Assembly (NCBI GenBank): GCA_030018135.1
Contig: JASEGJ010000030.1
Location: forward strand, 1-7,463
Origin: Candidatus Hodarchaeaceae archaeon
GTDB taxonomy: Archaea; Hadarchaeota; Hadarchaeia; Hadarchaeales; Hadarchaeaceae
Direction of reading: 5' to 3'
Length of the DNA stretch: 7,463 nucleotides
The number at the start of each line of letters is the position of its first letter. The stretch's first letter is position 1. Made by a program: the position numbers and the translations under genes. Below are positions 3,837 through 7,463 of this stretch, in pieces. Under the pieces are notes generated by a model, which searched no databases, was not told where the DNA came from, and worked only from the letters and a program-made list of their open reading frames with translations.

Positions 3837-4253
3837 CTAAATCGAAACGCTAGGGCCCGCCCCGAAAATCCTCTTTATACCCGGTATCGAGTCGAAGTCC
3901 GCGTCGTTGCTGTATATCTCGGTTATGCCCTCCCGCTGCATTTGTGCGACCATCACCAAATCGTTCCAACCGATTCTATATGTGCGCATCATCTCCTTCG
4001 CCGTTATGATATCCTCGAAGATGCATGGACGCTTTAGGAGGTAACCGTATGTCCTCAGCGCCTCCACAAATTCCGGGACCTCCTGTGGTCTCCCCCGTTT
4101 GAGTAGGTAGATACAAACTTCCTGAATCGCTAGGGTCGAGATCACGGCCTCCTCGCCGTTTTCTATCCCCTCCAATATTCCCCTAGCGACCTTTCCGAAC
4201 CTTGGGTGCCTGTCGAGGACGTAGATGAACACGTTTGAGTCCACGAACCTCAT
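3837..4253 (-). CDS. vapC: VapC-type PIN-domain ribonuclease toxin (first pair)
   Basis: 138 aa from ATG 4253. The PIN domain is a Mg-dependent RNase; VapC toxins commonly cut tRNA or rRNA and are held inactive by VapB. Acidic residues seen in order: D5 (MRFVDSNVF), E45 (LAIQEVCIYLL), D98 (IGWNDLVMVAQM), then D117, D119 and D121 (YSNDADFDSIPGIKRIF). All four PIN motif blocks are present and the length is normal, so the toxin looks intact. It lies directly downstream of an AbrB-type antitoxin. Its ATG would overlap the antitoxin stop by 4 bases (ATGA) if the antitoxin frame were not shifted. GAGAGGG about 5 bases before the start is a fair ribosome site. Confidence 0.9.
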   Translation of the reverse strand: MRFVDSNVFIYVLDRHPRFGKVARGILEGIENGEEAVISTLAIQEVCIYLLKRGRPQEVPEFVEALRTYGYLLKRPCIFEDIITAKEMMRTYRIGWNDLVMVAQMQREGITEIYSNDADFDSIPGIKRIFGAGPSVSI

Positions 4254-4515
4254 CCGATATCCCTCTCAATCCTTCCTTTGCTTCTTCGGCCATGGCCTCC
4301 TCGATAACTTCGTCGGGTCGATCGACCGGAGTCGGCGCCCTAGATAGGTTCCAAAGCATCTCCGTCGGCTTTTCTATCCTGGAGATCGGCAGTATGACGA
4401 TCCTTCCCCCCTCGCGGATCACCTCCACCTCGTCGCCCTCGCGGAGGCCCAGCGATTCCCACAGCTCCGGCGGGATCGAAACCCTGTGGCTTTTTTGGAT
4501 CGTGCGGATGACCAT
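4183..4515 (-). CDS. vapB: AbrB/MazE-fold VapB antitoxin, apparently frameshifted near its C-terminus
   Basis: As read, 110 aa from ATG 4515. Residues 1-45 (MVIRTIQKSHRVSIPPELWE, then GDEVEV and GRIVILP) are a SpoVT/AbrB DNA-binding fold; the rest should wrap the VapC toxin. Earlier in-frame ATGs at 4545, 4533 and 4521 exist. The TATA box overlaps 4545, so 4521 (leaderless) or 4515 (preceded by GGAG) is more likely. Oddity: the frame runs 71 bases into vapC, ending in a basic tail (RPRQAPKVRKGR) unlike VapB. One extra base near 4270-4278 would give EEAKERIERDIG and a stop at 4250-4252, forming the usual ATGA overlap with vapC and a normal 88-aa antitoxin. This is either a real mutation, a programmed -1 shift or a sequence error. 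Confidence 0.82.
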   Translation of the reverse strand: MVIRTIQKSHRVSIPPELWESLGLREGDEVEVIREGGRIVILPISRIEKPTEMLWNLSRAPTPVDRPDEVIEEAMAEEAKEGLRGISDEVRGLKRVHLRPRQAPKVRKGR

Positions 4516-4543
4516 CTCCATCTCCAAAGTCATTAATTTTGTC

Positions 4544-4552
4544 ATTTATAAA
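4544..4552 (-). promoter_or_regulatory. TATA box of the first vapBC operon
   Basis: On the minus strand TTTATAAAT lies about 27 bases before ATG 4521, the spacing of an archaeal leaderless promoter. The stretch 4541-4600 is strongly A/T-rich and also holds a plus-strand TATA-like TTTTTAAAAG, so it may serve two divergent transcripts. Confidence 0.6.
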
Positions 4553-4740: not shown

Positions 4741-4785
4741 AGGCGCTTATGTTTCCAAGAGAACTTATCGTGGGTAAGATGCCAA

Positions 4786-4798
4786 AGACTTATACATA
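4786..4798 (+). promoter_or_regulatory. TATA box of the decayed RHH-RelE operon
   Basis: TTATACATA (4790-4798), preceded by purine-rich CCAAAGAC as a possible BRE, is centred about 25 bases before ATG 4819. This fits a leaderless mRNA. The promoter looks intact although the genes behind it are not. Confidence 0.6.
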
Positions 4799-4818
4799 AT
4801 TACTAACATGGTGAAAAC

Positions 4819-5051
4819 ATGGCGAAAGCGAAGCGCCTGACGACGATCGCCATCCGCCCCGAGACGCGGGACCTCCTCCGCCGTTTCGGCCGGAAGGGGA
4901 GGACTACGACACGATACTCACCCGAGTGTTAGAGAACCGCGTGCTCGAGCTGGTTCTCCCGCGATGCCCTCCGAAGCCCGAGGAGATCGGGTCATTGGAG
5001 GGAGAGGGATATGTCTTACTCGAGGAACTCCGAGAGAGGCTCGGGATTTAA
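4819..5051 (+). pseudogene. Ribbon-helix-helix-like antitoxin, frameshifted
   Basis: From ATG 4819 the frame gives MAKAKRLTTIAIRPETRDLL and RRFGRKG. It then goes out of phase and stops at TAG 4930-4932 after 37 residues. The lost phase continues from about 4900 as DYDTILTRVLENRVLELV, ending in EEIGSLEGEGYVLLEELRER and a stop at 5049-5051. One extra G in the G-run 4896-4899 would give KGEDYDTILTRVLE, the usual pattern of small archaeal antitoxins (TTIAI...TRDLL...FGRKGE.YD.I). The repaired protein would be 77 aa, a normal length: an N-terminal DNA-binding strand and helix, then a toxin-binding tail. A RelE-like toxin follows at once, supporting the role. Decay or a base-calling error in the homopolymer are both possible. 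Confidence 0.72.
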
Positions 5052-5267
5052 GGTCGCCATTCGCCCACAGGTTCAAACTTATCCGAGACGATGGCAATCC
5101 ACGCGGCGAAACAGGCCCAGAGGTGTGCGGACGCCCTCGCCGAGCTTGGGCGGGATCCCTTCGGAGATCGATCCGATGTGGACATCAAACGCTGGCGCGG
5201 GCCGGAGTTCCAGTACAGGCTACGGGTCGGACGCCACCGCTTCGGATACGACGTGCGGAAGGGTCAA

Positions 5268-5567
5268 CTACCCCTCCTTGAAAGAAGGGGCTTGTCCCTC
5301 AGGGTGATTCAGGTGTCGCCGACCACCATCATCGGACAAGGCGCGGCGGCTGACTGCGCCGCCAGCCGCAGGAATCTGGGCGTAGGTAACCATGCTTTCG
5401 CCCGCCCCGCGGCAGATGTTGAGCGAAGCCACCCGATCGGCATTTGCCTCGAACCCGCACCGAATGCACTTGAAGTAGCGGAAGTTTCGACGGTTGGCCT
5501 TGTCGACGAGGCACCACCTCAGCCCTATGCGATTTTCGGGGAGAGAGGTCACCGAAAGTAATCCCAA
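5268..5567 (-). pseudogene. tnpB: TnpB C-terminal fragment (RuvC-III and zinc ribbon)
   Basis: TnpB is an RNA-guided nuclease of about 350-400 aa; here only the end remains. From about 5520 the frame reads CLVDKANRRNFRYFKCIRCG and then FEANADRVASLNI. CIRCG is the second zinc knuckle and the Asp of ANADRVASLN aligns with the RuvC-III catalytic Asp. The first knuckle is damaged: a single Cys before LVDKANR where CxxCG is expected. The RuvC-I and RuvC-II acids and the whole N-terminal part are missing. The tail ends PEGQAPSFKEG at TAG 5268-5270, inside the right-end hairpin, as is usual. The frame is open back to TTG 5567, but residues before CLVDK look like left-end sequence fused by an internal deletion. 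No start is expected, so it should not be functional. Confidence 0.85.
5271..5290. repeat. Right-end hairpin of the IS605 remnant
   Basis: CCCCTCCTT and AGAAGGGG arms form an eight-pair stem with one mismatch and a two-base loop. In intact elements this hairpin lies at the 3' end of the TnpB-associated RNA, and the flanking host sequence supplies the guide. Here that flank is relE. Confidence 0.6.
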
Positions 5568-5575
5568 ATTCCTCC

Positions 5576-5595
5576 CCCCCAGCTAAAGCAGGGGG
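5576..5595. repeat. Left-end hairpin of the IS605 remnant
   Basis: Five C's pair with five G's, then an A-A mismatch, two G-C pairs and the loop TAAA. It lies 15 bases inside the inferred left boundary, a usual subterminal position for the TnpA recognition hairpin. Confidence 0.55.
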
Positions 5596-5655
5596 TCTCC
5601 TTGGGGTGTTTTAAATGAAAAAATCGTCGACGTCAAACGGGCTTGGATGAAGTAA

Positions 5656-5760
5656 ATTTTTTTAAAAAAGTTGATGGTACTAACCGCAAAGCTTTATCGC
5701 GCGCCGAAACTTGTCGGTTGAGGGTTGACAACCCGATCGTTTTATATGCCATTCACGAGC
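5656..5760. terminator. Short spacer with A/T block and hairpin between relE remnant and vapC
   Basis: ATTTTTTTAAAAAAG (from 5656) offers T-runs on both strands. It can stop plus-strand transcripts from the relE operon and minus-strand transcripts from the second vapBC. A 13-base hairpin, GGGTT-GAC-AACCC, lies at 5722-5734. TTTTATATG at 5739-5747 resembles a TATA box but has no gene in position behind it. No coding region is seen. Confidence 0.45.
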
Positions 5761-6174
5761 TCATTTAATCTCATTCAAAAATTCAGCTGGCGTAACCGCG
5801 TTGACCTTCTCCCGAACCTCCTTCGTTGAAAAATCCTTGTCCCCGGTTATGAAATAATCTGGCCTCACGGCAAGCGCACAGGCTAAAATTGGAGCGTCTT
5901 TCTTGTCCCCGATCAATTTTGCCGCGCTCGGAATGAGGTCGAGGTATCTCTTGGCCGGGATTACCCTCGCTCCTACCATTCTCAGAAAATTATCCAATAA
6001 GTACTCTCTGTACGAAATTTTTCTCCTAAAAACTGCGCGAATCTCCTCGAGTTCATCCACAGGGATCAGAAGCCTAAGCCTTCGCTTCCCTAACAGCTTG
6101 AGTATCTCTGATGGTTTCCCAGTATAGAGAAGTCCGGAAAAGATGATGTTAGAGTCCACCAAGACGTTTTTCAT
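5761..6174 (-). CDS. PIN-domain toxin (second VapBC-like pair)
   Basis: 137 aa from ATG 6174. The frame is open 12 codons further up, but those residues (RRGRRSGRKS) are in the antitoxin gene and unlike the family. Seen: D7 (MKNVLVDSNIIFSGL), acidic cluster E41/E43/E44 (VDELEEIRAVF), D90 and D93 (GDKKDAPILACALA), D112 and D114 (FITGDKDF). These are the four PIN blocks, and the spacing and the SGLLYTGKPSEIL opening resemble the PIN_3 group of putative toxins more than the first VapC. Expected activity is Mg-dependent RNA cleavage. The start overlaps the antitoxin end by 26 bases, and GGAAGGA about 5 bases before it can act as the ribosome site, so the pair is co-expressed. It looks intact. Confidence 0.88.
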   Translation of the reverse strand: MKNVLVDSNIIFSGLLYTGKPSEILKLLGKRRLRLLIPVDELEEIRAVFRRKISYREYLLDNFLRMVGARVIPAKRYLDLIPSAAKLIGDKKDAPILACALAVRPDYFITGDKDFSTKEVREKVNAVTPAEFLNEIK

Positions 6175-6445
6175 ACTTTTCCTTCCAGATCTCCGCCCGC
6201 GCCGCTTCAATCTCCTCCTCGATGTCTTTCAGAGTCAATCCCTTCCGCTTCGCCAGCTTCCTACAATATCTCTGCAGCTCTTCCAAGGAATCCATTATCT
6301 CGACTTTTTTCAGGAGGGCCAGCTCGCTGCCAACGCTCTCTACTATCAATTTCGCCCCGGGTTCAATGCCGAGTTTTCTTCTGACCTCTTCCGGTATGGT
6401 AACTTGGCCTTTCTTCGTCACAGATACGAGCTTCACCTGGGTCAC
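6149..6445 (-). CDS. AbrB-family antitoxin (second pair)
   Basis: 98 aa from GTG 6445; GTG 6436 is an alternative. The TATA box lies about 30 bases above GTG 6445, which suits a leaderless message. The frame is open much further upstream, but that part overlaps the promoter and the FnIII gene end and is not real. Residues 5-50 (KLVSVTKKGQVTIPEEVRRK, LGIEPGAKLIVE, ELALLKK) are a classic SpoVT/AbrB swapped-hairpin DNA-binding domain. Residues 51-98 form a charged helical tail (EELQRYCRKLAKRKGLTLKD, EEEIEAARAEIWKEKYEKR) expected to bind and mask the PIN toxin. A 21-bp palindrome covers the transcription start, implying self-repression. Unlike the first vapB, its frame ends normally inside the toxin start region. 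Confidence 0.9.
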   Translation of the reverse strand: MTQVKLVSVTKKGQVTIPEEVRRKLGIEPGAKLIVESVGSELALLKKVEIMDSLEELQRYCRKLAKRKGLTLKDIEEEIEAARAEIWKEKYEKRLGGL

Positions 6446-6451
6446 GATTAA

Positions 6452-6480: not shown

Positions 6481-6510
6481 TGCGGGGTTTTTCAAATTTT
6501 CCTGCTAGCC

Positions 6511-6920
6511 CTATTTCAACTTGAGCCTTGATGCAACGATGAGCGTCGCCACGATCGCCCCGATCGCGCGCCCGATCAAGAGCCAGTTCACGCCTCCCTC
6601 CGGGGGCGGGACTTCGATCGATAAGGTTGTCGCCCACCTCTGGACCGAGTCGCCATAAGAGCCCGCCGCGTCGTGGGTCCGGATTTTGAAGTAGTGGGGG
6701 GTTCCCGGGATAAGCCGCTGGCGGTGCAGGAGGTTGTCGATGCGTCCGTTATCGTCGCGAGCATGGTTTCATCGCTCGGCGTGAAGCCCGGCTCCGTGGA
6801 TCCATAGACCTCGTAGCGCGCGAAATCCTCGAGCGTGCTCTGGGACCAGCTCAGTGTTACAGAACTCGCCCTGACATCCGTCGGCGATTTGAGAATTATC
6901 GCCCTGCCCGCCGCCCCACC
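6511..6920 (-). pseudogene. Fibronectin-III domain plus C-terminal membrane anchor, headless and frameshifted
   Basis: The minus strand reads AIILKSPTDVRASSVTLSWS, then RYEVYGSTEPGFTPSDE and ATITDASTTSCTASG in one phase to about 6714. It then continues in another phase as LIPGTPHYFKIRTHDAAGSY, WATTLSIEVPPPEGG and a hydrophobic WLLIGRAIGAIVATLIVA with tail SRLKLK, stopping at TAG 6511-6513. FnIII marks are the LSW tryptophan, the YEVYGS strand and the PGTPHYFKI strand. One extra C near 6713 restores SGLIPGTPHYF. There is no start codon: the first phase runs back into the 3' end of the upstream ATPase gene. What is left is the last domain and anchor of what was probably a larger surface protein. 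The orientation matches both neighbours. Confidence 0.72.
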
Positions 6921-6927
6921 TACCGCT

Positions 6928-7463
6928 TTACAGCTCCTCCGAGGCGGTGCCCTCGCTCCCCTTCGTCCCCCCGACGGGTTTCCCGACTCCCTCCATCTCC
7001 TTCTTTGACCTCTTCTTTGGCTCCTCCGGGATCTTCTTCACCACTATGCCCTGGTCGGTTATGTTGAAGAAGTGCAGCTGGTTGCTGTGCTCCGTGCCCC
7101 GCATCTTCCTTATCTCCAGCGCCCTGTCACGCGTCAGGCCCTCGCCCTCGTAGTACAGCACTATCACGCCGTCCGCGACGTCCTCTTCCATGCCGACCCT
7201 GCTGAGCTCCTCCCTGCCCTCCCTGATCTGGGATGTCAGCAGCGAGGTACAGTCGAGCCTTGCCAGCCTGTCCTTGAGGTCGCCCAGCTGCAGCCTCATC
7301 GTGAACTCGTCCGGGGCGAACGCGGAGAGCAGCTCCACCCCGTCTATGGCAACGCGCTTGGACTCCGAGCTCTCGACCGCCTCCACCACTTCCGCGAAGA
7401 TGTCCTCGATCGCTGCTTCCGCCTTCTTCATCGCCTTGGTCACGCTCGCCAGGGGGCCGCCCA
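6928..7463 (-). CDS. KaiC/RAD55-type RecA-fold ATPase, C-terminal part (runs off window)
   Basis: The frame is open through the window edge, so the N-terminal part with Walker A is not visible; GTG 7443 is internal, not the start. Seen: a charged helix AMKKAEAAIEDIFAEVVEAV, then the Walker B strand RVAIDGVELLSAF. LARLDCTSLLTSQIREG follows, then VADGVIVLYYEG, and RALEIRKMRGTEHSNQLHFF with ITDQGIVV, the order found in archaeal KaiC-like proteins. RKMRGT corresponds to the conserved KMRG segment that reaches the neighbouring subunit. The last 35 residues (EEPKKRSKKEMEGVGKPVGG, then acidic residues) are a charged, probably unstructured tail. Such proteins are signalling or DNA-associated ATPases; ArlH of the archaellum is one relative. 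The exact role here cannot be told. Confidence 0.85.
   Translation of the reverse strand, partial: GGPLASVTKAMKKAEAAIEDIFAEVVEAVESSESKRVAIDGVELLSAFAPDEFTMRLQLGDLKDRLARLDCTSLLTSQIREGREELSRVGMEEDVADGVIVLYYEGEGLTRDRALEIRKMRGTEHSNQLHFFNITDQGIVVKKIPEEPKKRSKKEMEGVGKPVGGTKGSEGTASEEL

What the first reader, a model, noticed from the sequence alone, without database searches (positions are those of the whole stretch)
5044..5655. RelE-like toxin split by a TnpB-derived element; the toxin rejoins in frame when the insert is removed
Toxin sequence stops at codon 5259-5261 (GYDVRK) and restarts at 5611 (LNEKIVDVKRAWMK, stop 5653-5655). Dropping 5262-5610 (349 bases) restores the phase. On the minus strand the left end of the element is bordered by TTTAA (5611-5615), which fits a TnpB/TnpA target motif, and the right end borders relE sequence. 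This is a readable record of a transposition into a toxin-antitoxin locus, and it predicts both the target motif and the guide sequence the ancestral element would have used.
Basis: partly seen in the sequence, partly recalled or inferred. Interest (0 to 1): 0.7.

Follow-up and report, generated by a model that had tools for sequence, protein, structure and literature searches.

The report
Toxin gene split by dead transposon
An already broken toxin gene of a Hadarchaeota archaeon is interrupted by a 352-base leftover of a jumping gene that cannot move by itself; relatives with the uninterrupted gene and other copies of the element fix its exact ends, and the element carries the same promoter-like motif as several of the host's DNA-repair genes.

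Summary
The core observation holds. A RelE/ParE-superfamily toxin gene is interrupted by a TnpB-derived element on the minus strand, and relatives carry the uninterrupted gene. Three independent lines place the insert at 5263-5614 (352 bp, not 349). Six intact homologues all have 60 nt from the FGY codons to stop, against 412 in the window. All 17 right ends in this order finish exactly in GGGGTAGTTGAC. The left end follows TTCAT, not TTTAA: 20 of 23 left ends have TTCAT and 22 of 23 have TCAT. TTTAA is one base of TTCAT plus four bases of the element.

The gene is also broken elsewhere: single-base frameshifts near 4898 (antitoxin) and 5083 (toxin). The insert is a core-deleted IS200/IS605 (TnpB-only) element, like the PATEs of haloarchaea, without N-terminal TnpB. 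So this is a new member of a known kind.

Noticed on the way, and more surprising: the element keeps a promoter-like motif that in this genome lies upstream of MCM, RadA, NurA, Hef, Hel308 and Top6B, and also of other mobile genes. Most copies in the order whose left flank was read abut a host start codon.

The parts
4819..5051 (+). Antitoxin gene, broken by a single-base frameshift near 4898
   Evidence: DNA alignment to the intact G012 gene; in G012 it is 74 aa and weakly like DUF7557 (E 0.034)
5011..5262 (+). 5' piece of the RelE-like toxin gene, with a single-base frameshift near 5083
   Evidence: 75% protein identity of 5091-5261 to G012; alignment
5263..5614 (-). The inserted element, 352 bp: core-deleted TnpB-only IS200/IS605-type element
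   Evidence: gene spacing excess 352; right end shared by 17 copies; left end; G017 full form
5615..5655 (+). 3' piece of the toxin gene with its stop codon
   Evidence: 44-bp alignment to G012, E 5e-6; same length from FGY codons to stop once 352 bp are allowed for
5615..5619 (-). Target motif TTCAT next to the left end
   Evidence: TTCAT in 20 of 23 left ends, TCAT in 22 of 23
5576..5595 (-). Left-end hairpin
   Evidence: fold; conserved block in related left ends
5545..5559 (-). Promoter-like motif ACTTTCGGTGACCTC shared with host recombination genes
5271..5519 (-). C-terminal TnpB remnant (half of the zinc finger and RuvC III)
   Evidence: 83% identity to residues 323-405 of P0001; PF07282
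5263..5292 (-). Right-end hairpin and terminal GGGGTAGTTGAC
5247..5262 (-). Flank that would serve as guide of the omega-RNA (16 nt shown)
   Evidence: inference from the right-end boundary and known TnpB biology (PMC10097598)

Best explanation
A TnpB-only element of the IS200/IS605 superfamily, from a family that inserts 3' of TTCAT and ends in GGGGTAGTTGAC, inserted on the minus strand into the 3' part of a RelE-like toxin gene without a target duplication. The copy lacks about 1 kb of core relative to the G017 element: the left end, the C-terminal TnpB codons and the right end with its omega-RNA region remain. It cannot make TnpB, and no intact Y1 transposase was found in the 93%-complete genome, so it is stranded unless moved in trans. 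Shown: the ends, the empty site in relatives, the TnpB fragment, the missing core, the host gene's frameshifts. Inferred: single-strand transfer, the guide, whether the deletion came before or after insertion, and the order of the lesions.
For: Intact homologues with the site uninterrupted; excess of exactly 352 nt against six relatives; right end identical in 17 copies with divergent flanks; TTCAT at left ends found without asking for a flank; full-length relative with a guided_TnpB protein; another short copy in the same genome between rpl24e and ndk, whose junction is empty in six relatives; only a remnant of TnpA in this genome.
Against: No population data or reads, so the insertion cannot be dated and assembly error cannot be excluded for the two frameshifts. 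The RelE assignment of the host gene rests on sub-threshold profile hits.
Confidence: 0.93

Rival explanations
1. One reading: a 349-bp element at 5262-5610 with target motif TTTAA, as in Sulfolobus TnpB elements.
For: TTTAA is present at 5615-5611 on the minus strand, and the phase is restored.
Against: Gene spacing demands 352; the right end stops at 5263 in 17 copies; the left flank is TTCAT in 20 of 23 left ends.
Confidence: 0.03
2. The insert is still useful to the cell: its omega-RNA is made and guides a TnpB encoded elsewhere, or acts as an antisense RNA on the toxin locus.
For: The right-end RNA region is intact and folds somewhat better than shuffles (z -2.1); short copies in relatives also keep this region.
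Against: No full-length TnpB of this family was found in the genome; P0001 hits only the two fragments. The TATA-like box of the element's promoter motif is altered, and the host gene is frameshifted.
Confidence: 0.04

Closest known systems
PATEs and core-deleted IS605-type elements of Haloquadratum walsbyi (PMC3119063)
   Same: Near-terminal palindromes, no inverted repeats, no target duplication, core of a TnpB element lost, both ends kept
   Different: This copy keeps 83 codons of TnpB, has a TTCAT border and sits inside a toxin gene; other phylum
Full TnpB element of Hadesarchaea G017 (L017)
   Same: Same ends, 89% identity over the right 248 bp, same border motif
   Different: 1.34 kb with an intact 405-aa TnpB; lies upstream of a class II tRNA synthetase gene (proS-like)
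Sulfolobus islandicus TnpB elements (PMC10640517)
   Same: Archaeal TnpB, border motif 5' of the left end
   Different: Border motifs TTTAA and TTTAT there, TTCAT here
RelE/YoeB/ParE toxins
   Same: Weak profile similarity over nearly the whole length of the intact relatives
   Different: Below Pfam's cut-off; the window copy is broken three times

Membership tests
IS200/IS605 superfamily, TnpB-only (IS1341-type) element, core-deleted | Encodes or derives from TnpB | tested here: met
   TNB domain in the remnant; 83% identity to a guided_TnpB protein
IS200/IS605 superfamily, TnpB-only (IS1341-type) element, core-deleted | Subterminal hairpins at both ends, no terminal inverted repeats | tested here: met
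   Folds and alignment of ends
IS200/IS605 superfamily, TnpB-only (IS1341-type) element, core-deleted | Insertion 3' of a fixed short motif without target duplication | tested here: met
   TTCAT; exact accounting of 352 bp against the empty site
IS200/IS605 superfamily, TnpB-only (IS1341-type) element, core-deleted | Transposition by a Y1 transposase through single-stranded DNA | not testable with these tools
   Only a TnpA remnant in this genome
PATE (palindrome-associated transposable element) | Too short to code for a transposase, palindromes close to the termini, no target duplication | tested here: met
   352 bp; hairpins; definition in PMC3119063
RelE/ParE toxin superfamily (host gene) | Match to the family profile above cut-off | tested here: inconclusive
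   PF05016 at 22.9 bits against 23; YoeB E 0.003 by profile
RelE/ParE toxin superfamily (host gene) | Paired with a small upstream antitoxin gene | tested here: met
   Overlapping small gene upstream in the relatives and, frameshifted, in the window
RelE/ParE toxin superfamily (host gene) | Ribosome-dependent mRNA cleavage or gyrase poisoning | not testable with these tools
   Needs an assay of an intact relative

The most novel reading that the evidence does not exclude
In Hadarchaeota a shared promoter element (about ACTTTCGGTGACCTCTCCCC followed by a TATA-like CGCTTAAA) defines a host recombination and fork-repair regulon (RadA, NurA, Hef, Hel308, MCM, Top6B). Mobile elements that need host recombination or single-stranded DNA to spread (TnpB and TnpA elements, LAGLIDADG homing endonucleases) carry the same element, so their nucleases are made when the host's recombination machinery is. 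The window's dead insert preserves a copy of it.
Probability: 0.5. Interest if true: 0.75.

Novelty: new member of a known kind. Interest (0 to 1): 0.42.

Why it matters
The split gene itself is an ordinary transposon scar, but it helps fix to the base the ends and the TTCAT motif of a widespread TnpB family, and so makes the intact TnpB of a relative directly testable. The promoter motif it carries would matter more: the paper searches made here found no description of a shared promoter motif for archaeal recombination genes, and one also used by transposons and homing endonucleases would link selfish-element expression to host repair.

Tried and rejected
Rfam on the window gave nothing; on related copies the only hits near the elements were sub-threshold HEARO (opposite strand) and HgcC matches, discounted. 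A ribosome-binding-site role of the left end read in antisense (GGTG before the ATG) looked good in Hadarchaeota, but the methanogen copies lack it, so it was dropped. Paper searches for TTCAT with TnpB and for archaeal repair promoter motifs found none; a wider search listed only general papers, judged from titles and abstracts. The protein downstream of the motif in L004, L261 and L275 looks primase-like by eye, but L004 has no Pfam, NCBIfam or PDB match and L261 no NCBIfam match; it is not counted as a repair gene. AlphaFold and Foldseek were not used, since the sequence evidence settled the question.

Full report
What was checked. The window is contig C23 of a 1.1-Mb genome, 93% complete. 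Its named relatives are Hadesarchaea: the G017 contig matches JAGMBM010000082 of isolate RS_16_21 in length and match position, and G025 contigs match JAPDJF01 of isolate S4B3_HD70. The split gene was always searched as separate pieces; the two flanks were never joined.

The host gene. Residues coded by 5091-5261 match intact genes in several Hadarchaeota, best 75% in G012. The intact relatives are 97-103 aa, match ParE_toxin PF05016 below its cut-off, and as a profile match YoeB (E 0.003) and an archaeal RelE-type protein (1wmi, E 0.018) in the PDB. RelE/ParE superfamily is therefore the best name, not a proven one. A small antitoxin-like gene overlaps upstream.

The gene is broken in more than one way. 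Against G012 the window lacks one base near 4898 in the antitoxin and one near 5083 in the toxin, so the stretch 5044-5261 is not one frame. Real decay or assembly error cannot be told apart without reads.

The empty site. DNA of G012 aligns to window 4784-5260 and then, with no base between, to 5613-5656. In six intact relatives the distance from the FGY codons to the stop is always 60 nt; in the window it is 412, an excess of exactly 352.

The ends of the element. The motif GGGGTAGTTGAC occurs 17 times in the 27 genomes of the order, 13 of them in G025; the four genomes that hold it have no hit for the reversed control. Every copy diverges after it. That puts the right end at 5263. The left end was found by its hairpin block without asking for a flank: 20 of 23 have TTCAT, usually 10-12 nt before the block, and 22 have TCAT. 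That puts the left end at 5614 and the motif at 5619-5615. Then 5263-5614 is 352 bp, as the gene spacing demands.

What the element is. G017 carries the full form (1.34 kb) with a 405-aa TnpB that scores as guided_TnpB (7e-31). The window copy keeps residues 323-405 and both ends, and lacks about 1 kb of core. Another short copy lies at C21:502-840, between rpl24e and ndk. That junction is uninterrupted in G001-G006. The right-end pattern occurs in at least 120 stretches of the genome collection, mostly methanogens, Thermoplasmata and Hadesarchaea, some bacteria. The only Y1 transposase in this genome is a remnant. The nearest described kind is the PATE / core-deleted IS605-type element (PMC3119063).

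How it works, and how sure. Shown: position, ends, motif, missing core, empty sites. From established knowledge of the family: single-strand transfer by a Y1 transposase, and a guide taken from the flank at 5262 and below (PMC10097598). Inferred: the order of deletion, insertion and frameshifts.

Noticed on the way: start codons. The TCAT at the left end is the antisense of a gene's ATG start in five of the seven Hadarchaeota copies whose left flank was read: ndk, a class II tRNA synthetase (proS-like), a topoisomerase and two likely membrane proteins. In the 22-copy set, 11 have an open frame of 100 codons or more from that ATG, against 23% of TTCAT sites in general. The motif plus selection against gene disruption explains this simply. 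The window copy is one of the exceptions.

Noticed on the way: a promoter-like motif. The left end contains ACTTTCGGTGACCTC (5545-5559). In this genome it occurs 15 times at up to one mismatch, with no hit for the reversed control. Downstream lie MCM, NurA and Top6B, Rad51/RadA, Hef (5e-174) and Hel308 (8e-102), a radical SAM protein and an unassigned protein. Mobile genes are also downstream: two LAGLIDADG genes, the two TnpB elements discussed here, a site near the TnpA remnant, and a possible N-terminal TnpB piece with no family match. One site is unclear. In relatives the motif again precedes RadA, NurA, a topoisomerase and replication factor A as well as TnpA, TnpB and LAGLIDADG genes. 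Loci were fetched by the element or the motif, not by gene; the control for how often a random site lies before such genes was not run. That it is a functional promoter element, and a regulon, is inference.

Noticed in passing
window 5526-5572 (minus); L004, L006, L007, L009, L013, L286, L287, L005, L015-L019, L052, L091, L101, L102: Promoter-like motif ACTTTCGGTGACCTC..CGCTTAAA upstream of MCM, RadA, NurA, Top6B, Hef and Hel308 and of LAGLIDADG, TnpA and TnpB genes in Hadarchaeota; 15 sites in this genome against 0 for the reversed control.
   Followed up: partly
L002:498-501, L017:401-406, L077, L079, L072: Five of seven Hadarchaeota copies of the element abut the ATG start codon of a gene read away from the left end, because TTCAT contains the antisense of ATGAA; the rpl24e copy also supplies that gene's stop codon.
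   Followed up: partly
window 3837-4545, 4819-5655, 5761-6451: Three toxin-antitoxin-like modules side by side: two AbrB/PIN pairs on the minus strand flank the broken RelE-like module.
   Followed up: no
G025 (L072, L077, L079), G015 (L067), L002: Short copies (214-339 bp) without TnpB codons or nearly so keep about 200 bp of conserved, structured-looking sequence before the right end: stand-alone omega-RNA-like elements.
   Followed up: partly
window 6500-6930: A gene with a C-terminal membrane anchor on the minus strand appears frameshifted, so decay or assembly errors are not confined to the toxin locus. Read by eye only.
   Followed up: no
L287:825-3200: The Hel308 gene of this genome contains an intein with a LAGLIDADG domain.
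   Followed up: no
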